Positions 19,478 through 56,206 of a stretch of DNA of 64,000 nucleotides are shown one piece after another; position 1 is the first letter of the stretch, and every line of letters begins with the position of its first letter. Source of the DNA: Novipirellula herctigrandis (GTDB lineage Bacteria; Planctomycetota; Planctomycetia; Pirellulales; Pirellulaceae); assembly GCA_007859835.1 (NCBI GenBank), contig SJPJ01000001.1:7209400-7273399 (forward strand), in the 5' to 3' direction. A model generated the notes under the pieces. The model did not search any database. It was not told the DNA's origin and was given only the letters and a program-made list of their open reading frames with translations. A program made the position numbers and the translations under genes.

Positions 19478-20419
19478 GTGTTGCAAAAAAACATTAGTCG
19501 GCGGGACTTTACGAAACTAGCGACCGCGCTTGCTGGATCCCTCGGACTCGGAGCTGCTGCCGCTCCACGAACCGCTACCGCGCTGGAGAAGCTGGCGGCC
19601 GGGAAACCGAATGTCTTATGGCTTCAAGCACTTAGTTGCTCGGGCTGTACTGTCTCGGCACTCAACTCGTACCAACCTGATGCGATCGACTTGATTACCG
19701 AGTACATGTCGCTGCTGTTTCACTCGACCATCTCGAGTGCGACCGGCAGTCTTGCATCAAGTGTGATCAGCGAGACGATCGACCAAGGCGACTTTCTATT
19801 GGTTGTTGAAGGCAGTATTCCGTTGGGAATGCCGGAGGCGTGTATGTCCGGTGGCCGGCCTATATCTGAATTAATCGCTAAAGCCGCTGGTCGTGCGAAA
19901 GCGGTGGTCGCAGTGGGCACGTGTTCGTCCTTCGGTGGCATTCCGGCTGCGGAGAACAACCCAACGGGCGCAGTATCTGTTCGTGATTTTCTTGATAGTG
20001 AATCGATTGGAAAGCCGCTAATCAATTTGCCTGGTTGTCCATGTCATCCTGACTGGTTAGTTGGCACGTTGGTTCACGTCACCGAGTTTGGAATGCCGAG
20101 CCTTGATGATGATCTTCGGCCGACGATGTTCTACAGCAAAGTCGTTCACGACCAATGTCCCCGGTTCGCCGATTACGAACGTGGCAATTTTGCTGAGTCG
20201 TTCTCCGATTCAGGTTGCCTATTCAAACTTGGTTGCGTTGGGGCGAGAACCTTTTCGGATTGCATCCACCGACGTTGGAACGGTGGCGTGAATAGTTGCA
20301 TCGATTCGGGGGCGCCGTGTATTGGGTGCGCCGGGAAAGATTTCGCGAAGAAAGCCGATTTTCCATTGTATCGAATTGGACAAGAAGACGCCCTCGTTAC
20401 GGAGTTGGCACAGCGATGA
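19478..20419 (+). CDS. Tat-exported [NiFe]-hydrogenase small subunit
   Basis: About 313 residues from the GTG at 19478. A Tat signal opens the protein (SRRDFTK, then [16 protein letters not shown]). The proximal-cluster ligands are present: [21 protein letters not shown] and [10 protein letters not shown]. The C-terminal half has the distal and medial cluster ligands ([38 protein letters not shown]). This matches group 1 type respiratory uptake hydrogenases, which oxidise H2 in the periplasm. Unlike membrane-bound HyaA/HupS it ends without a C-terminal membrane helix, and no cytochrome b gene follows. Its TGA overlaps the ATG of a c-heme chemoreceptor gene. The large subunit is encoded convergently downstream. 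Confidence 0.93.
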
Positions 20420-22104
20420 AAAAGCAAACTGTAAAACTTACGATTGTTCTGCTCGTGGTGCTGATTGGAATTTGGTCAATTGCCCTTGTGGTCCAAAACC
20501 ACCGGACGCTCGCCTCGCTTCAGTCGCTTTCGGATCAAGATCTCAAGCAATTGCATGATAACGAGCAGCGGACGGCTCATACGATATTCGAGGCCATGGA
20601 ACGCGCTGTGGCGGAGAGCTTGCAACGCGGTGAAATGGAAAAGTTCAGTCGCCAACTCGCAGACCAGCGGTGCATCGACAATGTGATGGAATTTTCGTTA
20701 TTTGACCGAGACGGCAATGTGTCGCACTCGTCTAACGAAACGGAAATCGGTCGCAAAATCGAGCCTGATGTGGCTCGCCAGATTGAGAACAGCGAAGGAC
20801 TGACGGCGATTGAAAAGGAAGGAACCATCGAACTTTATCGGCCGCACATGGTTGTTGCCGACTGCGTCCGATGTCACAACACTTGGAAAACGGGTGAATC
20901 AGGTGGGGTGGGGTATCTAAAGTACTCAACTGCCTCGACCGAAGCGGCAAAACGGCAAGCAGCGTCGACCATCGCAGAAACTCGCCAAGACGTGGTCTAT
21001 GGATCGGCAATAACGTTGGTTGTCTCGTTACTTGTCGCCACCGTTGCGATTGTTTGGTTGATACGCCGGATGATTTTCATTCCCGTCGTCCAGCCACTCG
21101 CTGCAGTCGCCTCGGGTTTTGAGATCTTATCCAAAGGCGACTTGACCGTCCGCGTCGAAAATGACGGGCACAACGAAATGGCAGATGCCTTCAACCATTT
21201 CGTCGATCGGCTTCACAACGACATTGGCCGTATCGCCAAAGGTGTCCGGCGTATGTCCAGTTCAGGTGAAATGCTTGGCGGATCATCGGAACGATTGGCC
21301 GGGACGGCTGCTGAGGCACAGCAGGCGTCAAGTAACACCGCATCCGCTGTCGAGGAGATGTCCGTTACGATGGATAGTGTTTCCGGATCAACGGGTGACA
21401 TGGCCACTAGTTTTCGTACGATTGCGGACGCGGTCGGGAAGCTCGCCTCATCAGCGACCGACATGGCGGAAAGCGCCGATTCGGCGTCGGCACAGTCAAG
21501 CCAAGCGGCGACATTGGTTAGTCAAAGCAATGAAACTGTCACGCGTCTAGCCGGAGCAGCGGAGGAAATTGGTCGCGTCGTTGAAGTGATCCACGGCATT
21601 GCGGAACAGACCAATCTGTTAGCTTTGAACGCGACGATTGAAGCTGCTCGAGCTGGTGACGCAGGTCGCGGTTTCGCAGTGGTGGCATCCGAAGTGAAAC
21701 AGCTAGCCAATCAAACAGCCAAGGCGACTGACGATATCAAAAAACGCGTCGCGGCGATTCAAGACGGCAGTAGCGAAGCGATCACCTCAATCGGTGAAAT
21801 CAATTCCGTGATTGAACAGGTGGACGAACTTTCAAGATTGATAGCAGAATCGACGGAAACTCAGAGCAGTGAAAGCCGACTGATCGCAGAACGCTGCGGC
21901 GAGTGTTTGTCGTCAGCCGATTCCGTATCCCAATGTGTGAATGAATCCGCGTCGGCAACCCGCGAGATCGCGGAAAGCGTGACGCGATTGGATCAATCGT
22001 CACGTGTTACCGCCGAAGAGGCACAGCGGACTCAAGTCGCTGGAACTGAAATCAATGATCTGGCTCATGACATTGAAGCACTCGTGACGGTCTTCAAGTT
22101 GTAG
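20416..22104 (+). CDS. Chemoreceptor with periplasmic c-type heme site, translationally coupled to hydrogenase small subunit
   Basis: 562 residues from the ATG at 20416, which overlaps the stop of the small-subunit gene (ATGA). Domain order: membrane helix 8-28; periplasmic domain to about 194 with a covalent-heme motif CVRCH (Cys150, Cys153, His154) inside a DUF3365/Tll0287-like segment ([13 protein letters not shown]... GVGYLKYS); second membrane helix 195-217; HAMP; then a methyl-accepting signalling domain with [21 protein letters not shown] at the hairpin tip. c-Heme sensors of this kind respond to redox state or gases. Being encoded in the same unit as a periplasmic hydrogenase subunit suggests that H2 oxidation or periplasmic redox state is read out as taxis or another Che-type output. 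That link is inference. Confidence 0.92.
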
Positions 22105-22180: not shown

Positions 22181-23695
22181 CTAATGAACGGCACACGCCA
22201 AGCACGGGTCAAAGGACCGTACCACGCGTGCTGCTTCGAGTGGATTCTCTACATTATTCACAGGTGTTCCCATTAACGCCTGTTCGGTGGCACCGGGATT
22301 TCCTTCATCATCGCGTGGTGAACAATTCCAGGTTGTAGGGACGACGCACTGGTAATTCGAAATTTTTCCGTTGCGGATCTGTAGCCAATGTCCGAGTGCT
22401 CCGCGTGCTGCTTCGGTTAGTCCTGCTCCCGTTCCCGTTTGGGGGATTGTGAACGGCGTGTTCGTTGGCTCCTCGGGAGCAAGCATCTCGACCCACTCGA
22501 GCATCTTGGTAGCTACAATTTTCGCTTCGAGTGCACGGCTCAAATGACGTCCTAAAACGGATGGCAATGCGGTCGCATCAACGGCGAGCGCTTCTAAGTA
22601 TTTGTCAACCAGATTAACCAGATTCGGATCTGTACCGCGTTTGTACGCGGTCAACACTCGTGCCAATGGACCGACTTCCATCACCTGACCAGCGTAGCGT
22701 GGTGCCTTGATCCAAGAGTAAGCCTTATCCTTATGTGGGTCAGGGGCCGATGCACCCGAGGAAGGATGTATGCCCGATGGTGAAGAGAACCGAGAGTAGC
22801 AAGTGTCCTCGGTGATTTGATCTTGGTGAAACGTTTGCAGCTTTCCGTCCATCAGCACGCCGGGAGAGAAGGTTGGCTCTTCCGATCCCGTGGGTTGGCC
22901 AAACATTCCATAGGTTAGGAAATTTCCACAACCGCGTCCCACTTCAAAATAGTCAGGAAAAGCGGTGGCCACTCGTTGCACGTCGGGTAGATAAGCATCA
23001 TCGATGAATGTTGCCACTCGCTTGAGGGCCGAGCGAAAGCGAGCTACTTTTCTAGCGGTGACCGATTCCGTGACTCCCCCTGGAATCAGACCGGGAGCGT
23101 GCGGCAGTTTACCGCACCAAATCGCTCCCATTTGGTGAGCCAACGCACGCATTTCTAAAGCGATGACGTAATTCTTCAGGCCCATTTCATTTGTGAGGGC
23201 ATCATCCGCGTAGTTTCCCTCGTAACGTGGGAACAGAGGCGCAAGTGGGAAAAGTTGCTGAGTTTCGATTTGAGTTTGCACCCAAGTTTGCAGATTGCGA
23301 AGCGTCGGGTCGGAGCCTTCGTATTTCTGAATCGCAGCCAAGTCGATCCAGTCGACTGCCGAGAGATGATAGAAATGAAGTATATGGCTTTGCAGAAAAT
23401 TCGAGCCTTGGATTAAGTTTCGTAATAATTGCCCGTTTTGCGGTGGTGCAACGCCGTAGGCCTCTTCCTGAGCCATGCAAGAGGCGATGCCGTGAGCCAC
23501 AGGGCAGACACCACAAATCCGCTGCATGATTTGCTGAGCGTCCATCGGATCACGTCCCTGCAGAATCGCTTCAAAACCGCGAAACATTTCTCCAGAGCAT
23601 TCAGCAGTGATGACTTTTCCCTCTTCGACGTCGACGCGTATCGACAAATGGCCTTCGATTCGTGTTAACGGGTCAATCGTGATTTTGCGATTCAT
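22181..23695 (-). CDS. [NiFe]-hydrogenase large subunit lacking a C-terminal propeptide
   Basis: 504 residues from the ATG at 23695, preceded by ggagacaacagc; an upstream in-frame start at 23752 is less likely. The L1 nickel site RICGVCPVAHG (Cys61, Cys64, His68) and the L2 site DPCLACAVH (Cys498, Cys501, His504) are complete. PLTRIEGHL is the usual N-terminal block. The reading frame stops directly after the L2 histidine, so the cleavable tail normally removed by a maturation protease is absent. It presumably pairs with the exported small subunit encoded convergently at 19478-20419; that split, with a chemoreceptor gene between, is unusual because these subunits are normally adjacent in one operon. 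Divergent from hypF. Confidence 0.93.
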   Translation of the reverse strand: MNRKITIDPLTRIEGHLSIRVDVEEGKVITAECSGEMFRGFEAILQGRDPMDAQQIMQRICGVCPVAHGIASCMAQEEAYGVAPPQNGQLLRNLIQGSNFLQSHILHFYHLSAVDWIDLAAIQKYEGSDPTLRNLQTWVQTQIETQQLFPLAPLFPRYEGNYADDALTNEMGLKNYVIALEMRALAHQMGAIWCGKLPHAPGLIPGGVTESVTARKVARFRSALKRVATFIDDAYLPDVQRVATAFPDYFEVGRGCGNFLTYGMFGQPTGSEEPTFSPGVLMDGKLQTFHQDQITEDTCYSRFSSPSGIHPSSGASAPDPHKDKAYSWIKAPRYAGQVMEVGPLARVLTAYKRGTDPNLVNLVDKYLEALAVDATALPSVLGRHLSRALEAKIVATKMLEWVEMLAPEEPTNTPFTIPQTGTGAGLTEAARGALGHWLQIRNGKISNYQCVVPTTWNCSPRDDEGNPGATEQALMGTPVNNVENPLEAARVVRSFDPCLACAVH

Positions 23696-23917: not shown

Positions 23918-26263
23918 GTGAGGCTAACGGTGCGACCCGAACGGTGGCGAGTCCGAGTGAAAGGCGTGGTGCAGGGCGTTGGCTTTCGGCCGTTCGTTTG
24001 GCGTTTGGCACAAACCGAAGGACTAACCGGATGGGTCCGCAATGATTCGATAGGAGTTCTGGTCGAGGTTCAGGGTGGAAGCGATAGACTGAGTCAATTT
24101 TGTGATCAAATCCGAAACGAGGCGCCACCGCTTTCCATCGTTAGCGATGTTCTGGTTGAAGTGATTGAACGAAAACACGATGAACTTTCGTTTCAAATCG
24201 ACATTTGCCAAACCGATGCGGATCCTCATGCCCTTGTCTCTCCGGATGTGGGCATTTGTGCGGAGTGCTTATCTGAAATCAATGATCCGGCGAATCGGCG
24301 ATACCGATACCCATTTACGAATTGCACGGCGTGTGGTCCCCGCTACACCATCATTACGGATCTTCCCTATGATCGGCCAAGTACGACGATGGTCGACTTT
24401 GCCATGTGCCCGACCTGCGACCGCGAATACAACGATCCCACGGACCGTCGTTTTCACGCTCAGCCCAATGCGTGTCCAGATTGTGGACCATCGGTATGGT
24501 TTGTCAAAATCGGTGATGTCAAAAGCGGTGATGTTGAAAGCAAGAAGCCGGCCTGGAATGGGGATGCGATCGAATCGGTGAAGCAAACGATTGCGGAGGG
24601 CGGAATCGTTGCGATTAAGGGAGTTGGCGGTTTTCATCTCGCTTGTGATGCAAGGAATTGTGACGCAGTCACAGCACTGCGAGCGAGGAAACAGCGAGTT
24701 GAAAAGCCGTTGGCAGTGATGGTTGCTGATGTGGTGACCTGTGAAACGTTCGCGATTCTCAGCGATTCAGAACGAGCACTGATTGAAAGTCAGCAACGTC
24801 CAATCGTGCTTTTGCGCCGGCGCGGTGGCGTTAATCTTTGGTGTGATGCGGTTGCTCCTGGAAACGACTTCATTGGCGTGATGTTGGCGTATTCGCCTCT
24901 GCACGCATTGCTGGTGGAGCCCGGTCAAGTGTGGGTGATGACATCGGGAAACTTATCAGACGAACCAATTGCGTATGAAAACGAGGACGCGATGGAGCGG
25001 TTGGCGACAATCGCCGATGCCTTGCTGTTTCATGACCGGCGAATCGAGACGGTTTGCGATGATTCGGTCCTTCGAGTTTTGGATGAAACGGTGCTTCCGA
25101 TTCGGCGATCGCGCGGCTATGCGCCGCTTCCCATTACCGTACCGACCGACGGGCCTCCGCTGCTTGCCGTTGGCGGTGAAATCAAGGCGACTGTCTGTTT
25201 GAACAAAGGAAACCAGTGTTTTCTTAGCCAGCACATTGGCGACATGGGAAATCAAGAGACCTTGTTGGCGATGGAGCGAGCCGTGGATCATCTTGTGCGG
25301 TTGTATTGCGTCGAACCCGAGTTGGTCGTTGCCGATCTTCATCCCGGATACTTGTCGACGGCGTGGGCAGAACGTTTTTCGATCAACCGCGGAATTCCCT
25401 TGCAAAGAGTTCAGCATCACCATGCGCATGTCGCATCGCTGCTTGCCGAGCATTCTATCTCGCCCGAGGTAAAGATCATCGGTGTGTGTTTTGATGGAAC
25501 TGGTTACGGAACCGATGGAGCAATTTGGGGTGGAGAGTGGTTGATTGCGAACGCGTGTGACTTTCAGCGGTACGCACATCTTTCCTATGTGCCACTGCCG
25601 GGTGGTGATGCCTGTATCCGCCATCCTGCAAGATCTGCATTGGCCGGTTTATACCAAGCTGGGATTTCGTGGTCCGAGTCGTTCGCGTGTGTCGAAGCGA
25701 CTGCGTCTACGGATCAACGGTTGTTAGAGCAACAACTTCAGCGGAATTTTCGCTGCATACCGAGCAGTAGTATGGGGCGACTGTTTGATGCTGTTGCTTC
25801 GCTTTGCGGTGTGCGTCATCAGGTCAGCTACGAAGGGCAAGCCGCGATGGAGTCCGAGGCCATCGCCGCCCGAACGATGGAGACGACCGACTTACCGCCC
25901 TATGAAATTGTGGTCAGTGACCACGAGGTGCGTCGATTCGACGCGGAGCATTTAATTCACCAAGTCGTTTCCGACCTTCGTCGTCACCGATCGGTTGCTG
26001 AAATTTTGGCCCGATTTCATTTGACGATCGCAGAAGCGATCGTGCGGATCAGCAACGATGCCCGTGCAGAACACTCCATCGAACATGTGGGACTAACCGG
26101 CGGTGTGTTCCAAAACGCATTGCTGACGCAATATGCACGAAAACGGTTAACCGAGGAGGGGTTCGAGGTGTTGACGCATACGACTGTCCCACCAAATGAT
26201 GGTGGACTTGCACTGGGCCAAGCGTGGATTGCACGGCATTCGAATCAACACAAGCAAGCATAG
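23918..26263 (+). CDS. hypF: Hydrogenase maturation carbamoyltransferase HypF
   Basis: 781 residues. HypF makes the cyanide ligands of the NiFe site by converting carbamoyl phosphate and passing the carbamoyl group to HypE. Domains in order: acylphosphatase (GVVQGVGFRPFVWRLA, about 15-30), two zinc-finger units (CAECLSEINDP, NCTACGPRYTII, CPTCDREYNDP, CPDCGP, about 110-190), a YrdC-like nucleotide domain (GGIVAIKGVGGFHLACDA) and the Kae1-like C-terminal domain (HHHAHVASLLAEH, GVCFDGTGYGTDGAIWGGEW, GLTGGVFQNALL). Start is GTG 23918 or, with a good aggctaacg spacing, GTG 23930. First gene of hypF-C-D-E-A-B. Confidence 0.97.
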   Translation: MRLTVRPERWRVRVKGVVQGVGFRPFVWRLAQTEGLTGWVRNDSIGVLVEVQGGSDRLSQFCDQIRNEAPPLSIVSDVLVEVIERKHDELSFQIDICQTDADPHALVSPDVGICAECLSEINDPANRRYRYPFTNCTACGPRYTIITDLPYDRPSTTMVDFAMCPTCDREYNDPTDRRFHAQPNACPDCGPSVWFVKIGDVKSGDVESKKPAWNGDAIESVKQTIAEGGIVAIKGVGGFHLACDARNCDAVTALRARKQRVEKPLAVMVADVVTCETFAILSDSERALIESQQRPIVLLRRRGGVNLWCDAVAPGNDFIGVMLAYSPLHALLVEPGQVWVMTSGNLSDEPIAYENEDAMERLATIADALLFHDRRIETVCDDSVLRVLDETVLPIRRSRGYAPLPITVPTDGPPLLAVGGEIKATVCLNKGNQCFLSQHIGDMGNQETLLAMERAVDHLVRLYCVEPELVVADLHPGYLSTAWAERFSINRGIPLQRVQHHHAHVASLLAEHSISPEVKIIGVCFDGTGYGTDGAIWGGEWLIANACDFQRYAHLSYVPLPGGDACIRHPARSALAGLYQAGISWSESFACVEATASTDQRLLEQQLQRNFRCIPSSSMGRLFDAVASLCGVRHQVSYEGQAAMESEAIAARTMETTDLPPYEIVVSDHEVRRFDAEHLIHQVVSDLRRHRSVAEILARFHLTIAEAIVRISNDARAEHSIEHVGLTGGVFQNALLTQYARKRLTEEGFEVLTHTTVPPNDGGLALGQAWIARHSNQHKQA

Positions 26264-26336
26264 AATGATACTCGCCGTTGTCCTAGAATAGAGTGACACT
26301 TCAAACCACTTCCCTTTTACCTTTATCGCCAAAATT

Positions 26337-26606
26337 ATGTGCTTAGCTGTTCCGGGACAAGTCGAATCGCTGTTTGTCGAAAATGATACTCCCATGGGTA
26401 GGGTCAACTTTGGGGGAGTTATCAAGGAAGTGTGCATGATTTACCTGCCGGAGATCACCGTTGGCGATTACGTCATCGTCCATGTTGGGTTTGCGATTAA
26501 TCAAATTGATGAAGAATCGGCACAAGCAACATTAGAGTCGTTTGCCGAACTCGGTTTACTTGACGAGGAAATCGAGGAATTGCGAGCAAGCGGAGACGAA
26601 GCGTGA
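26337..26606 (+). CDS. hypC: Hydrogenase maturation chaperone HypC
   Basis: 89 residues with the invariant N-terminus MCLAVPGQV; Cys2 is the residue that binds the Fe(CN)2CO precursor together with HypD and delivers it to the large subunit. The rest is a small OB-like fold ([18 protein letters not shown]), of normal family length. The stop codon overlaps the start of hypD by 4 bases. It follows hypF by 73 bp. With two large subunits in this window and only one HypC, it probably serves both. Confidence 0.97.
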
Positions 26607-27697
26607 AGCACTTATCGGAGTATCGTGATGGCGAAAAATCGTTGAAACTTGCTGCTGAGATTTCTCGGATCGCCACTAGGCCCTGGGCCATCATGGAAGT
26701 TTGTGGCGGCCAAACGCATTCGATCATTCGCAATGGAATCGATCAGATATTGCCAGAGCAGATCGAGATGATTCATGGGCCTGGGTGCCCGGTTTGCGTG
26801 ACGCCGATCTCTGTGATTGACAAGGCATTGGAAATTGCCGCTCGTCCGGAGGTCATTTTTTGTTCCTTCGGCGATATGCTTCGGGTCCCGGGAACCGGTT
26901 CCGATTTGTTTCGTGTCAAAGGCGGCGGCGGTGACGTGCGAATCGTTTATTCGCCGTTAGATGCGGTGAAGCTTGCTCGAGCGAATCCGGGAAGTGAGGT
27001 CGTGTTTTTAGCGATCGGTTTTGAAACCACGGCGCCGGCGAACGCCATGGCGGTCAAGATTGCGAAAGATCAATCGATCAAGAATTTTTCTGTCCTCGTG
27101 TCGCATGTGCTTGTACCACCAGCGATCGAAGCAATTATGAATTCAGCTAACAACCGAGTGCAGGCGTTTTTGGCCGCAGGTCACGTTTGCAGTGTGATGG
27201 GGTTCCATCAATATCCTGCAATCGCCAGCAAATACGGGGTGCCAATCGTTGTCACTGGTTTTGAGCCACTCGATTTGCTCGACGGCATTCGGCGCACGGT
27301 CCTTCAACTCGAGTCAGGCAAAGCGTACGTTGAAAACGCTTTTCCGCGAGTCGTTAGCGAAGCGGGTAACGAGGTTGCTCAAGAAACGATTGCCGAAGTT
27401 TTTGAGATAACCGATCGTGCTTGGCGAGGAATCGGAGTGATCCCTGAAAGCGGCTGGAAACTGAGGCCTGAATACGCTGATTTTGATGCTGAGTTGAAGT
27501 TCAATGTGCCGCAGGTTGCACAGGAACATGTCACGATTTGCCGTGCCGGCGAAGTGTTGCGTGGTGCGATCAAGCCGCACCAATGTGAAGCCTTCGGTAA
27601 ACAATGTACGCCAAGAAATCCGCTCGGTGCGACGATGGTTTCGAGTGAAGGAGCGTGCGCTGCGTATTACAACTATGGAAGATTCGTGAAACCATGA
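26603..27697 (+). CDS. hypD: Hydrogenase maturation protein HypD
   Basis: 364 residues, the family's normal length. HypD is the [4Fe-4S] scaffold on which, with HypC, the Fe atom receives its CN and CO ligands. Visible motifs are [38 protein letters not shown] and the C-terminal cluster region ([29 protein letters not shown]). Start and stop both overlap the neighbouring genes (hypC and hypE) by ATGA junctions, indicating tight translational coupling. Confidence 0.97.
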
Positions 27698-28758
27698 CGA
27701 AATTGGACCCGATCGAAATTCAATCGCCACAATGTCCGGTACCACTACGTGACTATCCCGAAGTGATCCTCGCGCATGGCGGAGGAGGTAAGCTCTCTTC
27801 GGAGTTGATCGAGCATGTTTTCGCACCTGCATTCGCTAACGAACATGTGACTCTGCTAAGTGACTCGACGCCGCTAAACTTGCCAAACCAACAAATTGCC
27901 GTTTCGACCGATTCGTTCGTCGTCCAGCCGTTGTTTTTTCCGGGCGGCAGCATTGGTGAATTGGCGGTCAATGGAACGGTCAATGATTTGGCGATGAGCG
28001 GCTCACGGCCACTGTTTTTGACAGCAGGGTTTATCATCGAAGAAGGTCTGCAAATGGAACAATTGCTCCGCATTGCAAATGACATGGGGCGAGCAGCAAA
28101 AACAGCAGGCGTTTCGATCATCGCGGGTGACACAAAAGTCGTCGAGCGAGGATGCGGTGACGGTTGCTACATCAACACGTCGGGGATTGGGGTGCTACTA
28201 CCGGAGCGAGCGATTGCCATTGACCAAGCCCGCCCAGGTGATGTGGTGATTGTCAGTGGGACCGTCGGTGATCATGGCGTCGCAGTGATGAGTGTGCGTG
28301 AGGGCCTTGAATTTGAAACTCAAATCCAAAGTGACTGTGCACCATTAACTGCATTGGTACAAGCGATGCTCGACGCTGTCCCCAACATCCATGCGATGCG
28401 GGATCCAACGCGTGGTGGCGTTGCGATGAGTCTGAACGAGATCGCCGATGCGTCGGGGTGTGGAATCGAGCTTGACGACGAAAGTATACCGGTGAGAGGC
28501 CCCGTGCGTGCGGCATGTGAGTTTTTGGGGCTCGATCCGTTGCTGGTCGCGAACGAGGGGAAGCTGATTGCGATTGTTGCGTCTAGCGACGCCGATCGGT
28601 TGCTCGCTGCCATGAAAGCTCATCCGCTTGGTCGCGATGCGGCAATCATTGGCCGCGTGATCGAAGACAAGAATCGATTGGTGGTTGCTCGCACGCCCGT
28701 GGGAACCAAGCGGATCGTTTCCGTGCCGATCGGCGAGCAATTACCGAGGATTTGCTGA
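27694..28758 (+). CDS. hypE: Hydrogenase maturation protein HypE
   Basis: 354 residues from the ATG at 27694, which overlaps the hypD stop. HypE is an AIR-synthase-like ATPase that dehydrates the carbamoyl group on its C-terminal cysteine to thiocyanate, the cyanide donor. Motifs are [18 protein letters not shown] near the N-terminus, [26 protein letters not shown] and DPTRGGVA. The protein ends in PRIC, the invariant C-terminal tetrapeptide with the reactive cysteine, so it is intact. hypA begins one base after the stop codon. Confidence 0.97.
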
Positions 28759-28759
28759 A

Positions 28760-29110
28760 ATGCATGAACTGTCGATCGCGCTCAATCTTCTCGAAGTGGC
28801 ACAGCAGACGATGAGCGAACATGCGGAGTCCGAACTTGTCGCAATTCATATTCGACTTGGGCCAATGTCCGGTGTCGTCCGGGAGGCACTTGAATCGGCC
28901 TACTTAATTGCTCGCGAAGAATCCTTTTGCCCAAATGCCGCGTTGGTGATTGAAGAAACCGAGTTGATGGTCGATTGTCCAAAGTGTGGCGATCACCAAG
29001 TCGCGGTCTCTTTGAATGATCTTCGCTGTCGAAAATGTGGTACGGTATCGGGCCGGATCGTTGGTGGACGCGAAATGGAAATCTCAGCACTCGAAGTGAA
29101 GGACGAATAG
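28760..29110 (+). CDS. hypA: Hydrogenase nickel-insertion protein HypA
   Basis: 116 residues from the ATG at 28760, giving the invariant MHELSIA start with the nickel-binding His2. The C-terminal zinc site is formed by CPKCGDHQ and CRKCGTVSG. HypA works with HypB to insert nickel into the large subunit after iron-centre assembly. The start is separated by one base from the hypE stop. Confidence 0.97.
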   Translation: MHELSIALNLLEVAQQTMSEHAESELVAIHIRLGPMSGVVREALESAYLIAREESFCPNAALVIEETELMVDCPKCGDHQVAVSLNDLRCRKCGTVSGRIVGGREMEISALEVKDE

Positions 29111-29115
29111 CTCTG

Positions 29116-29778
29116 ATGACACGACTAGTAGAAGTTCGGACACAGATTCTAAAACAGAACGACGTGGTTGCGCGAGAGCTACGCAAACAGTTCGCCGAGC
29201 AGCGACGTTTTGTCGTTAGCATGGTGTCGAGTCCAGGATCGGGCAAGACACAATTGTTGCAGCAAACGCTTCAACTTCTTGGGGAACGATACCGCGTCGC
29301 GGCGGTCGTTGGCGATTTGGCAACCGAGAATGATGCTGCGAGATTGGCTAGTTCAGGAGCGATGGTCAAACAGATAACCACCGGCACGCTCTGTCATTTG
29401 GAAGCAGAGATGGTCCGCGAGGCGATAAAGCCATGGGATGACATCCCTCTTGATTTTCTGTTCATCGAAAATGTTGGCAACTTGGTTTGTCCGGCTAGTT
29501 ATGATCTCGGAGAAAATTGCCGCCTCGTCCTGTTCTCCGTTACCGAGGGTGAGGACAAACCGAGGAAGTATCCGACGATATTCAACACTGCGGATGCCAC
29601 CGTGATTACCAAGATGGATCTAGCCGAGGCGGTGGAATTTGACGATCCCGCAGCAAGAGCGAGTATCGAGCGGGTGCGTCCAGGGATGGAAGTGCTTCAC
29701 GTATCGGCAAAAACGAACGAAGGCATGCCAGCGTGGATCCATTGGCTTGAGTCACACCTTCCCGCATCGATTCCATGA
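29116..29778 (+). CDS. hypB: Hydrogenase nickel-insertion GTPase HypB
   Basis: 220 residues from the ATG at 29116. GTPase motifs are SSPGSGKTQLLQQTL (P-loop), GDLATENDA, IENVGNLVCPASYDLGE and ITKMDLAEAV. It lacks the N-terminal His-rich stretch and the CxxCGC nickel site found in some HypB proteins, so it is likely a pure GTPase that depends on HypA for metal delivery. Last gene of the hyp operon. Its 3' end overlaps the convergent hoxW gene by 27 bp, leaving no room for a conventional terminator between the two operons. Confidence 0.96.
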   Translation: MTRLVEVRTQILKQNDVVARELRKQFAEQRRFVVSMVSSPGSGKTQLLQQTLQLLGERYRVAAVVGDLATENDAARLASSGAMVKQITTGTLCHLEAEMVREAIKPWDDIPLDFLFIENVGNLVCPASYDLGENCRLVLFSVTEGEDKPRKYPTIFNTADATVITKMDLAEAVEFDDPAARASIERVRPGMEVLHVSAKTNEGMPAWIHWLESHLPASIP

Positions 29779-30243
29779 ATCCAGTAGTTCGATCACGCGG
29801 GCAAAGGCGGCATCGAGGTTTACCCGTGCGTCCGACGAAAGCCCTTGGCCGAGATCGAATTGGTAGCCACGAATTCCCAATACCCACGCCTCGGGCACGT
29901 GATGAAAATGGTCATGACAGATCGCCAATACCGCGCCAGGTGAAACGCTGTGGCTGGTGAAAGCGATTTCGGTGGTCGGGGCGAGTGACTCGAGATTGAA
30001 CGGCGGCGGTGCAGAGATACTGGCGTCAATAAACAGGACTCGCTCATAGTTGGCCAAGCTTGCCGCGTCCTCGATATTGAGTTGATAGTCGGCATCGGTT
30101 TCGAAATCCGACCGGTTGAGATTGGCAAGTCGTTCGATCAAGGCTGGACCGAGACCGTCGTCACCTCGCTCGGGGTTACCGCAGGCCATGACGAGATTGC
30201 ATGGCCGCTTTTTAGGTAGACCGTTTATCGGTAGCCCACTCAT
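29752..30243 (-). CDS. hoxW: Hydrogenase maturation endopeptidase (HoxW/HyaD family)
   Basis: 163 residues from the ATG at 30243, which overlaps the hoxH stop codon. The family removes the C-terminal propeptide of the large subunit once nickel is in place. Visible motifs are ACGNPERGDDGLGPALIERL (the GNxxxxDDG nickel-recognition block), FIDASISAPPPF and SHSVSPGAVLA. Its position directly after hoxH and the presence of a propeptide only in HoxH indicate that HoxH is its substrate. It is the only maturation protease in the window. Confidence 0.92.
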   Translation of the reverse strand: MSGLPINGLPKKRPCNLVMACGNPERGDDGLGPALIERLANLNRSDFETDADYQLNIEDAASLANYERVLFIDASISAPPPFNLESLAPTTEIAFTSHSVSPGAVLAICHDHFHHVPEAWVLGIRGYQFDLGQGLSSDARVNLDAAFARVIELLDSWNRCGKV

Positions 30244-31691
30244 CCGCGAGTTCGCTCGTCCAAAATCGTTCCATCGGGGCCGATCAGTTGCACGAGTAAC
30301 CGCATCTGGCCCAACGCATGTGTCGCGCAACTGAGGCAAGGGTCATAAGCGCGGATGCCCACTTCGATGGAGTTTAGCATTCCTTCGCTGATCTCGGCTT
30401 GTCCTTCGAGATATTGATCGGCGACCACGCGAACGGCTTGGTTCATCGCTTCGTTGTTGTGGGTCGTCGAAACGATCAGATTGCCTCTTCGAATTTGGTC
30501 ATTGTCATCAACCTCGTAATCATGGATCAACGTTCCGCGTGGAGCCTCGATGATCGCAACACCACGGTCGCGACGCTCGCCGGTTGTGGTCAGTTCGCCG
30601 CGAAGCACGTCAGGATCAGCCAGCAATTCACGCATCTTCTCTGCGCTGTGTACTAGTTCGATCAAACGAGCCCAGTGATACGCCATCGTGGCATGAATCG
30701 GTCGACCTTTTCCGAGTGCCATGAATTCTTGGCGTTCCTCTTCCGCGATCGGTGTGTCAATGAAGTCACAGTTGTTGATGCGGGCAAGCGGTCCGACTCG
30801 ATACCATCCCTTCTCTTGCCCCCTATCATGAATGAATGGGAATTTCATGTAGCTCCAATTGCGGACGCCTTCTCGGATCACATCGAGATAGTCTTCTGGT
30901 TTGACTTGATCAAAGATGATCTTTCCATCGGCATCTTTGGCGCGTAGATTTCCGTCGTACAAATCCAAGCAACCGTCTTCTCGCACGATGCTGAGGAAGT
31001 TGGACTCGAATGTGCCGAACGGGAGCAACTTTTCGGCGCTTGCGAGTGTGACATCTTTGCAGAGCTTTAGTCCTTCAACGCCCCACTCGAGCATCGTGTC
31101 CACTTCCGCAGCCAAACGATCACGATCCTCCTGTGACAAGTGCTTGTTGACACCACCGGGAATCGAACCGGTGCCGTGGATCTTTTTGCCAGCGGTCGCC
31201 TTAATGACCTCCTGGCCAAATTTCCGCATCAGTACCGCCTTTTTAGCGACTTCGGGGTACGCCTGGATCACGCCAATTACATTCCGCTGCGCAACGGGAG
31301 CGTCGAATCCAAATAGCAGATCCGGCGAAGAGAGATGGTAGAAATGCAATGCGTGAGATTGGAAAGTTTGGCCGTAGTGCATCAACCGACGGATTTTTTC
31401 CGCTGTCGGTGAGAGCGAATCGGCACCAACGATCATGTCACACGCTTTTGAGGCGGCCAAGTGATGGCTGACCGGACAGATACCGCAAAGCCGCTGCACT
31501 AACACAGGAACTTCCCAGTAGAAGTGTCCCTGCACAAAACGCTCGAATCCTCGGAACTCGATAATATGCAGCCGAGCCTGCGTCACATGATTATCTTCAT
31601 CCATCTGGATGGTGACTTTGCCATGTCCTTCGACCCGCGTGACAGGATTGATCACGATCTTGCGAGTGCCGTTTTGTGTTGCAGTCGTCAT
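30240..31691 (-). CDS. hoxH: NAD-linked bidirectional [NiFe]-hydrogenase large subunit HoxH
   Basis: 483 residues from the ATG at 31691. L1 site RLCGICPVSHH and L2 site DPCLSCATH carry the four nickel cysteines. After the L2 histidine comes a 25-residue tail (ALGQMRLLVQLIGPDG, ending DERTRG), the propeptide removed by HoxW. The N-terminal block NPVTRVEGHGKVTIQMDE and GFERFVQGHFYWEVPVLVQR are typical of group 3d enzymes rather than exported group 1 enzymes. With HoxY it forms the H2-activating module of a cytoplasmic NAD(P)+-reducing enzyme. Confidence 0.96.
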   Translation of the reverse strand: MTTATQNGTRKIVINPVTRVEGHGKVTIQMDEDNHVTQARLHIIEFRGFERFVQGHFYWEVPVLVQRLCGICPVSHHLAASKACDMIVGADSLSPTAEKIRRLMHYGQTFQSHALHFYHLSSPDLLFGFDAPVAQRNVIGVIQAYPEVAKKAVLMRKFGQEVIKATAGKKIHGTGSIPGGVNKHLSQEDRDRLAAEVDTMLEWGVEGLKLCKDVTLASAEKLLPFGTFESNFLSIVREDGCLDLYDGNLRAKDADGKIIFDQVKPEDYLDVIREGVRNWSYMKFPFIHDRGQEKGWYRVGPLARINNCDFIDTPIAEEERQEFMALGKGRPIHATMAYHWARLIELVHSAEKMRELLADPDVLRGELTTTGERRDRGVAIIEAPRGTLIHDYEVDDNDQIRRGNLIVSTTHNNEAMNQAVRVVADQYLEGQAEISEGMLNSIEVGIRAYDPCLSCATHALGQMRLLVQLIGPDGTILDERTRG

Positions 31692-31708
31692 TATCTCTGC
31701 CTTTCGGA

Positions 31709-32248
31709 TCAATCGTATTTTAATAGTTCGTAATCGAGTACCGGTTCGCGTCCTTCAAGCAAGGCCACGATGGCAGCCCAAAGAGCATCGGCCGACGGCG
31801 GGCACCCAGGGATGAAGTAATCGATCTTGACCACTTCATGCGCGGGGTAAACACGGTCCAGCATGATCGGGATGTCGGGATCGTTGGGAATCACGCCATC
31901 GATGACCGACGGTCCGCGAAGAAACGCTTCTTCGAGGCATTCACGTAGCGGAACAGTGTTGCGCATCGCAGGCACACCACCGGTCAACGCGCACGCACCA
32001 ATCGCAACAAGAGTTTTGCAGTTCTTGCGGAACATTCGCAAGAATTCGACATTTTCGTCGTTGCTACATCCTCCTTCGATGATTCCGATATCGACGACAC
32101 GATCGAATCGCTTTTTGTCGTTAATCGGAGACTTATCGAACTCGACCAGTTCCGTCAGTTGCAAGATCCGCTCGTCAATATCGAGCAACGACATGTGGCA
32201 ACCGAAACAGCCGGTAAAATGCCCGGTGGCGATAGTAGGCTTGGACAT
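31709..32248 (-). CDS. hoxY: NAD-linked bidirectional [NiFe]-hydrogenase small subunit HoxY
   Basis: 179 residues, the short form typical of group 3 hydrogenases with a single proximal [4Fe-4S] cluster. Ligands: TGCFGCHMSLLDID (two Cys), GACALTGGVPA and IPGCPPSADALW. No Tat signal, so cytoplasmic. It passes electrons from HoxH to HoxU/HoxF. It lies 17 bp before hoxH and 30 bp after hoxU in one operon. Confidence 0.96.
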   Translation of the reverse strand: MSKPTIATGHFTGCFGCHMSLLDIDERILQLTELVEFDKSPINDKKRFDRVVDIGIIEGGCSNDENVEFLRMFRKNCKTLVAIGACALTGGVPAMRNTVPLRECLEEAFLRGPSVIDGVIPNDPDIPIMLDRVYPAHEVVKIDYFIPGCPPSADALWAAIVALLEGREPVLDYELLKYD

Positions 32249-32278
32249 TGGAATGAAATCCTTCCGATACTTTAGTGA

Positions 32279-32992
32279 TCAGTGAGACGCAGCCTGCTCG
32301 ATCTCCGAACCAATTGGGTTATGGTCGTACTTGCGCTCCCCGACGGGGACTGAGTAGCCGACGCGTTTGGTGCGCAAACAACCGGTTGGGCAAACGTGGG
32401 CTGCCGCGTCTGCGACATCCATCAGTGTTTCGCCTAATCCATGCTCGGCGTTGACGGTGATCACTTTTTCGATGCCACGCCCCTCAAAGGCGAACACTGT
32501 CTTACCATCCTGCAAAGCCGAAGCCCGCACACAACGACCGCAAAGAATGCACAAATCACGGTTAATAAAGATGTCGGGATGCGTCGCATCGACCTCGCGG
32601 TGCGTTTCGATGTAAGGCAGTTTCGGGACGACCATTCCCAACCGATATCCCTCGGCTTGCAGTTCGCAATTACCACTGGTTTCACACGAAGGACAAAAGT
32701 GGTTGCCTTCGACAAACATCATCTCTAGCACAGTACGCCGATGAGCGTTCAATTCCTCGGTGTCGTTTTCAATCGTCATCCCCTCTTCTACTGGGATGGT
32801 ACACGAACTCCGAGGCCGTCCATCGACCTTCACAACGCATAGTCGACAGTGACCTCGTGGCGGAAGATCCTTGTGGTGACAAAGCCGTGGAATGTAAATT
32901 CCCGCATCGTCAGCCGCTTCGATGATCTTTTGGCCCGCTTTGGCCTCCACTTGCTTTCCGTCGATGGTAATGGTGACGGTCTTGTCTCTCAT
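32279..32992 (-). CDS. hoxU: Hydrogenase diaphorase iron-sulfur subunit HoxU
   Basis: 237 residues, the size of HoxU rather than full-length NuoG. An N-terminal [2Fe-2S] ferredoxin domain (CHHKDLPPRGHCRLCVVK and a later SSCTIP) is followed by the His/Cys cluster (NHFCPSCETSGNCELQ) and a two-cluster ferredoxin segment (LCILCGRCVRAS, HVCPTGCL). It wires HoxF to HoxY. The gene order hoxF-U-Y-H-W matches the standard bidirectional-hydrogenase operon. Confidence 0.95.
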   Translation of the reverse strand: MRDKTVTITIDGKQVEAKAGQKIIEAADDAGIYIPRLCHHKDLPPRGHCRLCVVKVDGRPRSSCTIPVEEGMTIENDTEELNAHRRTVLEMMFVEGNHFCPSCETSGNCELQAEGYRLGMVVPKLPYIETHREVDATHPDIFINRDLCILCGRCVRASALQDGKTVFAFEGRGIEKVITVNAEHGLGETLMDVADAAAHVCPTGCLRTKRVGYSVPVGERKYDHNPIGSEIEQAASH

Positions 32993-33050
32993 CGTTGGGT
33001 TCCCTCTCTGTTCAATGAATTATCGGGATCGATGCACTGGCCGTTTCAGT

Positions 33051-34847
33051 TTAAGAGTTTGTCACGGCAGGTTCTCCTGTTTCGATCTGAAACAATTCGC
33101 GACCAGAGGCAGTACAGCCAGCCTTCAAGGCTTTGTTCAGATCCAGACGCGGATAGTAGTCGCCCTCTTGTAATCGTGCTTCGTACAATTCGGGGAACTG
33201 TTCGATCGTACTCAGAATCGGATTGGGCGCGGTTAGCCCTAATCCGCATTGACTCATCGTTTTGATCGTGCCGCACAACTGTTTTAGTTCGTCAAGTTCC
33301 CTATGGGTTGCATGCCCGTCGAGGACTTCACGAAGATCTTTCAGTAACAGCGTCGTGCCGACACGGCATGGTACGCACCATCCACACGATTCCTCGGCGA
33401 AGAATTCACCGAACTGGTACATGTATTCCAATATATCGCGATCAGGCCCAAAGATAATGATCGAACCGCCCGTCGGAAGATCTTCGAACGCGATGCTACG
33501 CAGGTAGTCTTTCGGTCCAATGCAGAAACCCGATGGACCGCCGATTTGAACCGCTTGGGCGTCCTCGGCATCCACTTGTTGTAGAAGCTTTTCGACAGTG
33601 ATGCCGTACTCGACTTCGTAAACACCCGGCAGGCGGCAGTCACCTGAGATGCTGAGCAGTTTCGTTCCCTTGCTCTGCTCTGTTCCCAGCCGCGAGAACC
33701 ATTGGCCGCCATGTTCGAGAACACGCGAAACACCGCAAAACGTCTCGACGTTATTCACCAGCGTCGGCTGTTCCTTGTAGCCGCGTTCGACAGGGAACGG
33801 CGGTCGATCTCGTGGCGCGCCCCGTTTGCCTTCGAGCGATTCAATCAGAGCTGACTCTTCGCCGCAGATGTAAGCGCCTGCAGCGGCTTGGATACGGATA
33901 TCGAAGTTGAAACCCTCGATGCCGCAAATGTTGTTTCCAAGTAGACCTAGTTGACGATGATTCGCCAGTGCACGTTCAAGGCTTCCGCGAAGGTAATCAT
34001 ATTCGCCGCGTAGGTAAATCATTCCTTCTTCGGCGCCGATCGTGAATGCGGCGATTGTCATGCCGTCGAAGACAAGCTCTGGATTCTCCATTAGGATCAC
34101 ACGATCCTTGAATGTTCCGGGTTCGCCCTCGTCCGCATTGCAAATCACGTAATGCGATTCGCCTTTTGAGGTTCGGCATTTTTCCCATTTACTGGCGGTG
34201 GGGAATCCTGCGCCGCCACAACCACGCAAATGAGATGCATAGAGCTCGATAATGACTTCCGCGGGCGTTTTGCGAATGGCCTTGCGCACCGCATCGCCAC
34301 TTTCGTAGGGCCCCAACAGAATTGGCCCACTTTGGCGTAGGTTCTTTCGCACTCGCGCCTGCGGCAATGTGTCAATCTCGTCACCCGAGCAAATCGCAGC
34401 AACGATTCCGGGAACATCCTCGGGCTTCAGTTGGGTCAGCGCGATTCCGTTAACCAACACGCTGGGGGCCTGGTCGCTGAGGCCAATACAGGAAGCTTTT
34501 TCAAGAGTCACCTTGCCATCTTCGGTCGTCTCACCGAGAAAGATACCGAGCTCTTTCTCAAAGGCTTCGACCAATTCATCGGCGCCATTCATGCGCTCAA
34601 CGACAGCCGTGCAAATGCGGATGACGTTTTTCCCTTGAGGCGAGCGGGAGAAGAACGCATAAAAACTGACCATGTCTCGAACTTGAGCACGATGGATGCC
34701 CAAATTCTTAGCAATCAGTCCGATGCTGAGTTCAGAGAGATGCCCCAGCCGCCCGTGCACGGCCCGGGCCACATCCATCAGTCGCGTAGGATCATTGTTA
34801 AACTGATGTGCGATCTGTTCGATGATCGCAGTCGTTTCCTTTGGCAT
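33051..34847 (-). CDS. hoxF: NAD(H)-binding diaphorase subunit HoxF with fused NuoE-like domain
   Basis: 598 residues. The first ~165 residues are NuoE-like, then a NuoF-like body: FMN/NAD-binding GCGGAGFPTASKWEKC and NADEGEPGTFKDR, GAYICGEESALIESLEGKRG, and the C-terminal [4Fe-4S] site ESCGWCVPCRVGTTLL with a later CGLGLTAPNPIL. HoxF oxidises or reduces NAD(H) and feeds the hydrogenase module. In the NuoE-like part only two of the four usual [2Fe-2S] cysteines remain (RICTAVVERM, ASCIGLSDQA), so that cluster is probably absent or altered. The fusion explains why no separate hoxE is present. First gene of the operon. Confidence 0.95.
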   Translation of the reverse strand: MPKETTAIIEQIAHQFNNDPTRLMDVARAVHGRLGHLSELSIGLIAKNLGIHRAQVRDMVSFYAFFSRSPQGKNVIRICTAVVERMNGADELVEAFEKELGIFLGETTEDGKVTLEKASCIGLSDQAPSVLVNGIALTQLKPEDVPGIVAAICSGDEIDTLPQARVRKNLRQSGPILLGPYESGDAVRKAIRKTPAEVIIELYASHLRGCGGAGFPTASKWEKCRTSKGESHYVICNADEGEPGTFKDRVILMENPELVFDGMTIAAFTIGAEEGMIYLRGEYDYLRGSLERALANHRQLGLLGNNICGIEGFNFDIRIQAAAGAYICGEESALIESLEGKRGAPRDRPPFPVERGYKEQPTLVNNVETFCGVSRVLEHGGQWFSRLGTEQSKGTKLLSISGDCRLPGVYEVEYGITVEKLLQQVDAEDAQAVQIGGPSGFCIGPKDYLRSIAFEDLPTGGSIIIFGPDRDILEYMYQFGEFFAEESCGWCVPCRVGTTLLLKDLREVLDGHATHRELDELKQLCGTIKTMSQCGLGLTAPNPILSTIEQFPELYEARLQEGDYYPRLDLNKALKAGCTASGRELFQIETGEPAVTNS

Positions 34848-44200: not shown

Positions 44201-48981
<4,781 letters not shown>

Positions 48982-49230
48982 GCAAGTCTCTCTCATCTAA
49001 GAACCGGATGCTCAGGTTTCGTCCAATCCGATCATTATGAAGGCCAGTGTGCGTCCCGACTAGCCATCGAGGTCACATCGGCGCGGAAGTCGAAGAATTG
49101 TGTAGGTCAACCATTATGGTAGACTCTTAGCTCCGTCTCGCTCACGTTTCAGCAATAACGGTTAGAATGTTTTGGCGGGTATCACGCTCATCCAATTGCG
49201 CCGTTCATTCATTAAGACAAGGGATGAAAG

Positions 49231-55775: not shown

Positions 55776-56206
55776 AAACGCCCGCGTGTATTCAAGCGGT
55801 ATTACGGGGCACATGCGTCCGGAACTGAACGTCCGGGGGGAATCGTCCGAGTTCGCCCTTCTCGGGTGGGCCCCGTGTCAATGATGTTTATCGGGTTCGA
55901 GTGTTGTAGCATCCGGATTTGCGGTGGGACATCTTCGGTTCAGTTTTAGTATCCGAGCTTGCGCGGCTTTTGGAGGAAGCCGGTGGGAATCGGCTACCTG
56001 TGCAACCGACAACTTTTTTTCGCTCTATACTTAATGACTTTCGCAAGTTGCTTTGAACTTAGCTTTCGGTGAGATTAGCATTCGTTGATTTGATGAGGTG
56101 GCGTCTTAACGGTACTATCCTCGCTGTGAAATTGGTTTGGAGCTGATCGACTATTGTCGCCAGAAACGCTAGCGGTTGGAAACGAGAAACCCCAGTAGTG
56201 ATTGAC
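55776..56206. other. Intergenic region without a supported gene
   Basis: About 430 bp between two plus-strand genes. It should carry the promoter of the sulfatase at 56207. A minus-strand frame of 119 codons overlapping the sulfatase 5' end is a mirror of the sulfatase signal region and is not supported. Confidence 0.45.

What the first reader, a model, noticed from the sequence alone, without database searches (positions are those of the whole stretch)
19478..22104. Hydrogenase small subunit translationally coupled to a c-heme chemoreceptor: candidate H2- or redox-sensing taxis unit
Seen: a Tat-exported [NiFe]-hydrogenase small subunit has its TGA overlapping the ATG of a methyl-accepting chemotaxis protein (ATGA). 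The chemoreceptor's periplasmic domain carries a covalent-heme motif CVRCH inside a Tll0287/DUF3365-like segment. Known: chemoreceptors normally pair with che genes, and group 1 hydrogenase small subunits normally pair with a large subunit and cytochrome b. Here there is no cytochrome b gene, no C-terminal membrane helix on the small subunit, and the chemoreceptor fills the position where an electron acceptor usually sits. Inference: the periplasmic hydrogenase may deliver electrons to, or be monitored through, the chemoreceptor heme, giving H2-taxis or a hydrogen/redox readout. I am not aware of this combination being described.
Basis: partly seen in the sequence, partly recalled or inferred. 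Interest (0 to 1): 0.88.

Follow-up and report, generated by a model that had tools for sequence, protein, structure and literature searches.

The report
Chemoreceptor wired to a hydrogen-splitting enzyme
A bacterial steering receptor is encoded next to an exported hydrogen-splitting enzyme in several distant groups of bacteria, which suggests that the enzyme serves as the receptor's hydrogen sensor, so that cells could steer by, or otherwise respond to, hydrogen gas.

Summary
A Tat-type [NiFe]-hydrogenase small subunit (19478-20419, +) overlaps by ATGA a chemoreceptor (20416-22104, +) whose periplasmic domain carries CVRCH. The large subunit (22181-23695) lies convergently on the minus strand.

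The pair is conserved. Starting from the small subunit, 6 of the 9 nearest loci have the receptor directly downstream (Omnitrophota, Sumerlaeota, Phycisphaerae, a "Proteobacteria" MAG, Verrucomicrobiales, Riflebacteria). Starting from the sensor domain, 23 of 36 hits outside the model's own rows sit beside that small subunit. All 32 large subunits seen in these loci end exactly at DPCxxCxxH; 67 of 67 comparable relatives carry a further 5-16 residues. The known H2-sensing regulatory hydrogenase also lacks that tail. The sensor domain diverges with the hydrogenase (rank correlation 0.71); the signalling half of the same receptor hardly does (0.14).

Best reading: an exported group-1-like [NiFe] hydrogenase is the H2-detecting subunit of a chemoreceptor. 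Electron transfer to the heme is plausible where CxRCH exists, but eight linked receptors lack it. Nothing was tested at the bench. HydDB's putative chemotactic [FeFe] group C2 is the nearest precedent; its 2016 table lists no chemotactic [NiFe] class.

The parts
19478..20419 (+). Hydrogenase small subunit, Tat-type signal, no C-terminal anchor, full set of Fe-S ligand Cys/His
   Evidence: Pfam and NCBIfam TIGR00391 over cut-off; nearest solved relatives are [NiFeSe] hydrogenase small subunits; ligand columns compared; hydropathy
20416..22104 (+). Methyl-accepting chemotaxis protein, coupled to the small subunit by ATGA
   Evidence: HAMP and MCPsignal over Pfam cut-off; overlap read
20491..20994 (+). 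Periplasmic sCache-like sensor domain of the receptor
   Evidence: Alignment A4; AlphaFold2 model mean pLDDT 86.1, pTM 0.77; Foldseek matches to WalK, DctB, GSU0935, GSU0582, Tll0287
20863..20877 (+). CVRCH, candidate covalent heme c site; its Arg is kept also where the heme residues are lost
   Evidence: Invariant C, R, C, H in 7 of 7 rows of A4; Arg column
22181..23695 (-). Hydrogenase large subunit, ends exactly at DPCLACAVH (no C-terminal extension), convergent with the pair
   Evidence: (NF033181 over cut-off)
23918..29778 (+). Maturation genes hypF, hypC, hypD, hypE, hypA, hypB
   Evidence: NCBIfam: hypF, C, D, E, B over cut-off; hypA 72.3 bits, below its cut-off of 88.1
29752..30339 (-). 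Hydrogenase maturation protease, next to the second hydrogenase; not expected to act on the tail-less large subunit (inference)
   Evidence: TIGR00072 over cut-off
30240..34847 (-). Second, cytoplasmic hydrogenase: VhuA-like large subunit, small subunit, HoxU-like and NuoE/NuoF-like subunits (shows H2 metabolism in the same cluster)

Best explanation
The three proteins form an H2-sensing chemoreceptor. The large and small subunits make a soluble [NiFe] hydrogenase that is carried into the periplasm by the small subunit's Tat signal (large subunit as hitch-hiker: inferred). It does not feed a respiratory chain; it docks on the sCache-like periplasmic domain of the receptor and reports H2. In the heme type, to which the window belongs, electrons from H2 most likely pass along the three Fe-S clusters to the c-type heme at CxRCH, and the heme's redox state (or the docking itself) is passed by HAMP to the cytoplasmic signalling tip and CheW/CheA. 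In members without the heme, conformational contact alone must carry the signal. Shown here by sequence: the genes, their conserved coupling, the tail-less large subunit, the shared divergence of sensor and hydrogenase. Inferred: docking, electron transfer, H2 as the stimulus, taxis as the output.
For: Gene pair conserved from both sides: small subunit first, 6 of 9 nearest loci; sensor first, 23 of 36 loci outside the seven model rows lie beside that small subunit, while 0 of 71 more distant hydrogenase loci (L032-L102) hold the sensor domain within the stretch fetched. Tight coupling: 23 of 30 pairs are 36 bases apart or less, eight of them with the 4-base overlap (window start corrected to the ATG). 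Large-subunit extension 0 in 32 of 32 (33 loci, one without a large subunit) against 5-16 residues in 67 of 67 others with the motif in view; the regulatory hydrogenase large subunit beside the RH small subunit on pHG1 also has 0, and PMC8229454 states that the RH lacks the extension (passages). Sensor and small subunit co-diverge (rank correlation 0.71; 0.14 for the signalling domain; partials 0.71 and 0.03; 0 of 2000 permutations as high; 0.64-0.77 against 0.10-0.21 in three subsets). In three Omnitrophota-group genomes the same CxRCH domain also drives hybrid histidine kinases, and each of these genomes holds the hydrogenase. CheA and CheW genes lie near 5 of 24 linked loci. No ORF with two or more CxxCH in 28 loci. 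The own genome has 10 MCP matches, CheW-domain proteins, flagellin and cytochrome c assembly proteins.
Against: No experiment. Eight linked receptors lack CxxCH (L134-L140, L151), so electron transfer to heme is not general. Five of 33 small subunits have Asp or Glu in place of one proximal-cluster Cys, and L139 and L187 depart at further clade-conserved positions. Three of the 9 nearest loci (Omnitrophota L023, L024, L026) have the hydrogenase without an adjacent receptor; one of these genomes has the receptor elsewhere beside CheA and CheW, in the other two no sensor match was found. Most of the 33 loci were found through the sensor, so 30 of 33 is not an unbiased rate. Signal-linked sCache_heme domains were described as NO sensors (PMC12889525). 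Che genes are not near in 19 of 24 linked loci. The pair is rare: 7 of 392 genomes of the own phylum.
Confidence: 0.72

Rival explanations
1. Energy taxis on a working respiratory hydrogenase: the enzyme oxidises H2 for energy, giving its electrons to an unlinked periplasmic cytochrome, and the receptor only monitors that turnover.
For: Nearest solved relatives are periplasmic respiratory [NiFeSe]/[NiFe] enzymes; most members keep the Fe-S ligands.
Against: No cytochrome b family among 33 window proteins, no multiheme ORF in 28 loci, operons mostly of three genes; the missing large-subunit tail is the feature of a sensory enzyme. A single-heme or unlinked acceptor is not excluded.
Confidence: 0.15
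2. A heme-ligand (NO or other gas) receptor for which the hydrogenase is the reductase that keeps the heme ferrous; H2 is fuel, not signal.
For: PMC12889525 (passages) reports that sCache_heme domains fused to signalling parts bind NO; CxRCH is invariant in the heme type.
Against: The hydrogenase link persists where the heme motif is lost (8 of 30 linked); other heme sensors of this fold in the same hits have no hydrogenase beside them (e.g. L153, L154, L169); that paper's main text does not contain the word hydrogenase, so it does not bear on this subgroup.
Confidence: 0.07
3. H2 sensing is right but the output is not swimming: the receptor feeds a Che-type pathway controlling something else (gene expression, c-di-GMP, surface life).
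For: The same sensor domain drives hybrid histidine kinases in L148, L149, L155; Che genes are near only 5 of 24 linked loci.
Against: The own genome has flagellin and CheW-domain matches; the output module of all 30 linked proteins is an MCP.
Confidence: 0.2
4. Chance or operon-level adjacency without functional link.
For: The large subunit is on the other strand in the window; the window's own close relatives lack the hydrogenase.
Against: Recurrence across phyla from both search directions, co-divergence of sensor but not of signalling domain.
Confidence: 0.03

Closest known systems
Regulatory hydrogenase HoxBC/HupUV with kinase HoxJ ([NiFe] group 2b)
   Same: A [NiFe] hydrogenase used as H2 sensor for a signalling protein; large subunit without C-terminal extension
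   Different: HoxBC is cytoplasmic (PMC6978683, passages) and drives a histidine kinase; this enzyme has a Tat signal, groups with group-1-like enzymes, is 31.5% identical to the pHG1 RH large subunit and is coupled to a chemoreceptor
[FeFe] hydrogenase group C2, 'Chemotactic (putative)' (HydDB, PMC5037454 Table 1)
   Same: Hydrogenase proposed to sense H2 for methyl-accepting chemotaxis proteins
   Different: Unrelated enzyme class; here [NiFe], exported, two subunits, with a periplasmic sensor domain
Periplasmic [NiFeSe]/[NiFe] hydrogenase, HydDB group 1a
   Same: Nearest solved structures for both subunits; Tat signal, no membrane anchor
   Different: No large-subunit extension, no linked electron acceptor, receptor in the operon; HydDB describes 1a as electron input for respiration
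sCache_heme / Tll0287 (DUF3365) sensors, incl. Geobacter GSU0935 and GSU0582
   Same: CxxCH in a periplasmic Cache fold of MCPs and kinases
   Different: Below Pfam cut-off; hydrogenase-linked; a related linked subgroup has no heme motif
Chemoreceptors that read a periplasmic binding protein (recalled, e.g. Tar with maltose-binding protein)
   Same: A separate periplasmic protein brings the stimulus to the receptor (proposed)
   Different: Here the helper would be a redox enzyme

Membership tests
Methyl-accepting chemotaxis proteins | MCPsignal and HAMP domains, membrane segments around a periplasmic domain | tested here: met
[NiFe] group 1a periplasmic hydrogenase | Tat signal and nearest relatives among periplasmic enzymes | tested here: met
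   NF033181 and TIGR00391 over cut-off; HydDB's own classifier was not run
[NiFe] group 1a periplasmic hydrogenase | Cleavable C-terminal extension on the large subunit | tested here: not met
   0 residues after DPCLACAVH
[NiFe] group 1a periplasmic hydrogenase | Respiratory electron acceptor | tested here: inconclusive
   None found in the window proteins scanned or as multiheme ORF near 28 loci; an unlinked one is possible
[NiFe] group 2b regulatory hydrogenase | Large subunit without extension | tested here: met
[NiFe] group 2b regulatory hydrogenase | Sequence kinship with HoxC | tested here: not met
   31.5% identity; HoxC on a separate long branch
[NiFe] group 2b regulatory hydrogenase | Cytoplasmic, no export signal, coupled to a histidine kinase | tested here: not met
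   Tat-type start; MCP partner. Kinases with the same sensor domain do exist in three relatives' genomes
sCache_heme / Tll0287-like (PF11845) | CxxCH motif | tested here: met
   absent in 8 of 30 linked relatives
sCache_heme / Tll0287-like (PF11845) | Profile match over curated cut-off | tested here: not met
   13.9 bits against 24.1
sCache_heme / Tll0287-like (PF11845) | Cache fold like 5b82, 3b42, 3b47 | tested here: met
   Foldseek E 4.7e-3, 8.5e-4, 2.4e-3 with TM about 0.4; WalK 8.7e-6; model without heme
sCache_heme / Tll0287-like (PF11845) | Heme actually bound | not testable with these tools
   Needs spectra
[FeFe] group C2 chemotactic hydrogenase | [FeFe] catalytic domain | tested here: not met
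   Large subunit is PF00374 NiFeSe_Hases

The most novel reading that the evidence does not exclude
A previously undescribed functional class of [NiFe] hydrogenase: exported, tail-less, sensory group-1-like enzymes that plug into chemoreceptors (and, in some genomes, kinases) through a dedicated Cache domain, in the heme type passing electrons from H2 straight to a receptor heme, so that a redox enzyme takes the place of a ligand and gives true H2 taxis.
Probability: 0.45. Interest if true: 0.9.

Novelty: new variant of a known kind. Interest (0 to 1): 0.82.

Why it matters
H2 is a main energy currency of oxygen-free habitats, yet how bacteria steer by it is hardly known; this gives named genes to test. 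It would add an exported, chemoreceptor-coupled branch to the sensory [NiFe] hydrogenases, so far tied to kinases or cyclic-di-GMP enzymes in HydDB's 2016 table, and it suggests that losing the large subunit's cleaved tail is a mark of sensory use that arose at least twice. Databases that sort by sequence would be liable to book these enzymes as respiratory (inference).

Tried and rejected
Chance adjacency was tested from both gene directions and is disfavoured. A plain Tll0287/DUF3365 label was rejected as a profile membership, kept as a fold likeness. The idea that heme reduction is universal was dropped after the heme-less linked receptors. GE of the GExxKF motif as a mark of hydrogenase linkage failed (25 of 30 linked, 10 of 13 unlinked; p 0.68), whereas Arg at the third place of CxRCH separates (29 of 30 linked, 5 of 13 unlinked; p 7e-5; without the seven model rows 22 of 23 against 5 of 13, p 3e-4). 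One clade for the tail-less enzymes: supported at 86/93 and 96/92 (L187 left out and extensions cut), but not in a tree with the distant HoxC added, where the tailed L032 falls inside at 81/61 and only 24% of bootstrap trees keep one clade. One more distant locus, L076 of a Clostridium, has an MCP ending 158 bases upstream of its small subunit, without this sensor domain. A sequence search of the sensor profile in the PDB gave nothing below E 0.5. One Pfam library match of a sensor segment to a toxin family at E 0.059, below cut-off, was ignored as noise. Structure of a complex could not be predicted with the tools; a second monomer job was not used.

Full report
What is there. The window (G000, a 9.5 Mb genome in 23 contigs) holds a hydrogenase small subunit at 19478-20419 (+) and a chemoreceptor at 20416-22104 (+) that share ATGA. 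Pfam and NCBIfam confirm both. The large subunit is at 22181-23695 on the minus strand, its end 76 bases beyond the receptor's end, and starts opposite hypF; hypFCDEAB follow at 23918-29778 (hypA below its cut-off), then a maturation protease and a second, cytoplasmic, Vhu/Hox-like hydrogenase. Among 33 window proteins scanned by Pfam none is a cytochrome b.

Conservation, from the enzyme. A scan of 84,980 species' genomes with the small subunit kept the best 80 of 158 loci. Nine stand apart at 52-59% identity (L023-L031); the next is at 40%. In six of the nine an MCP follows the small subunit directly (L025, L027-L031), in the order large subunit, small subunit, receptor wherever the large subunit is on the contig (L027's contig lacks it); three Omnitrophota (L023, L024, L026) have no receptor there. 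CxRCH is invariant in the six and the window. Of the 71 other loci, six hold an MCP somewhere in the stretch, one of them (L076) ending 158 bases upstream of the small subunit; none holds this sensor domain.

Conservation, from the receptor. With a profile of the seven sensor domains (A4) I searched 392 genomes of the own phylum (7 with a match), 15 chosen genomes (13), and 240, 14, 39 and 247 genomes of the phyla of L030, L025, L031 and L029 (2, 5, 2 and 14 with a match; some genomes occur in two searches). This gave 43 loci, L133-L175. In 30 the hydrogenase small subunit lies directly upstream on the same strand; without the seven model rows, 23 of 36. The 13 others were judged on flanks of about 1.5 kb: nine lie in genomes that hold a hydrogenase of this type elsewhere (L147-L150, L155, L170, L172, L173, L175), four in genomes where none was seen through this search (L153, L154, L168, L169). 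Three of the 13 are hybrid histidine kinases (L148, L149, L155; domains of L148 by Pfam). Adding all loci up, 33 hydrogenase loci of this type were in hand, 30 with the receptor, but 23 of them were found through the sensor, so this is not a rate. Of the 30 pairs, 23 are 36 bases apart or less and eight overlap by four bases; five are 82-216 apart and two could not be measured because of uncertain starts.

A tail-less large subunit. In 32 of 32 large subunits of these loci the protein ends exactly at the last metal-ligand motif DPCxxCxxH; among 72 comparison loci (L002, L032-L102) 67 had the motif in view and all carry a further 5-16 residues (66 of them 13-16). L003-L012 were not used because their large subunits run off the short loci. 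The large subunit next to the annotated regulatory small subunit on Cupriavidus plasmid pHG1 also has none, and that of the membrane-bound enzyme has 15. PMC8229454 states that the regulatory hydrogenase lacks the extension cleaved in most others (passages). Trees place the tail-less set on one branch at 86/93 (57 rows) and 96/92 (56 rows); with HoxC added the set is split by L032 at weak support.

Sensor and enzyme change together. Over 30 linked pairs the distance between small subunits tracks that between sensor domains (rank correlation 0.71) but barely that between signalling domains of the same receptors (0.14); partial values 0.71 and 0.03, no permutation of 2000 as high. Subsets without the model rows, without close small subunits, or with heme types only give 0.64-0.77 against 0.10-0.21. 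Permutation does not remove shared ancestry; the signalling domain is the inner control. This is what one expects if sensor and hydrogenase touch while signalling halves are exchanged to suit the local Che system (inference).

Heme and no heme. The model of the domain (7 rows, mean pLDDT 86.1, no heme) is Cache-like: WalK, DctB, the Geobacter heme sensors GSU0935 and GSU0582 and Tll0287 are among the Foldseek matches, the last three with TM about 0.4. Eight linked receptors (L134-L140, L151) have lost Cys, Cys and mostly His but keep the Arg of CxRCH; Arg is present in 29 of 30 linked and 5 of 13 unlinked sensors, and four of those five are in genomes that hold the hydrogenase. In five small subunits (L137, L138, L187, L192, L193) Asp or Glu replaces a proximal-cluster Cys (the assignment of ligands rests on recalled structures).

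Partners. CheA and CheW genes lie near five of 24 linked loci examined (L025, L030, L176, L188, L191) and beside the unlinked receptor of G482 (L195) (two CheA proteins confirmed by Pfam). No ORF with two or more CxxCH lies in any of the 28 stretches. The own genome has 10 MCP matches, five CheW-domain matches, two flagellin matches and two cytochrome c assembly matches.

Literature. Nine searches of the paper library showed no report of a [NiFe] hydrogenase-chemoreceptor pair in the listings seen; several lists were capped at 15-20 of up to 133 papers. HydDB (PMC5037454, figures-and-tables section read) lists [NiFe] 2b kinase-linked, 2c diguanylate-cyclase-linked (putative) and [FeFe] C2 chemotactic (putative), and describes 1a as respiratory. 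PMC4704652 (passages) cites the idea that sensory hydrogenases orient termite-gut bacteria in H2 gradients. PMC12889525 (preprint, passages) makes sCache_heme domains in signalling proteins NO sensors. PMC6978683 (passages) describes HoxBC as a cytoplasmic H2 sensor of HoxJ.

Verdict. New variant of a known kind: a sensory hydrogenase, but of another branch, in another compartment and with another partner.

Noticed in passing
L148, L149, L155: The same CxRCH sensor domain is fused to hybrid histidine kinases in three genomes (G484, G482, G734) that also hold the hydrogenase, suggesting one H2 sensor with two outputs.
   Followed up: partly
L134-L140, L151: Hydrogenase-linked receptors without the heme motif but with the conserved Arg.
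   Followed up: partly
L137, L138, L187, L192, L193: Small subunits with Asp or Glu in place of one proximal-cluster Cys (C56 of the window protein).
   Followed up: no
window 22181-23695: Only in the window is the large subunit on the opposite strand; the 28 linked relatives whose large subunit is in view or reported have it upstream on the same strand, pointing to an inversion here.
   Followed up: partly
window 30240-34847: Second hydrogenase with VhuA-like large subunit joined to HoxU- and NuoEF-like subunits, a mixed type.
   Followed up: no
window 17354-18883: A 509 aa protein with an N-terminal DoxX match and a long C-terminal part without Pfam match at E 0.01.
   Followed up: no
window 3464-5665: A second chemoreceptor with Cache_3-Cache_2 sensor domain 14 kb away.
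   Followed up: no
window 11988-13457, 35257-36699, 47392-48996, 56198-57820: Several sulfatases, usual for planctomycetes (recalled).
   Followed up: no
L190, L191 (G749) and L176, L186 (G1021): Two complete hydrogenase-receptor operons in one genome.
   Followed up: no
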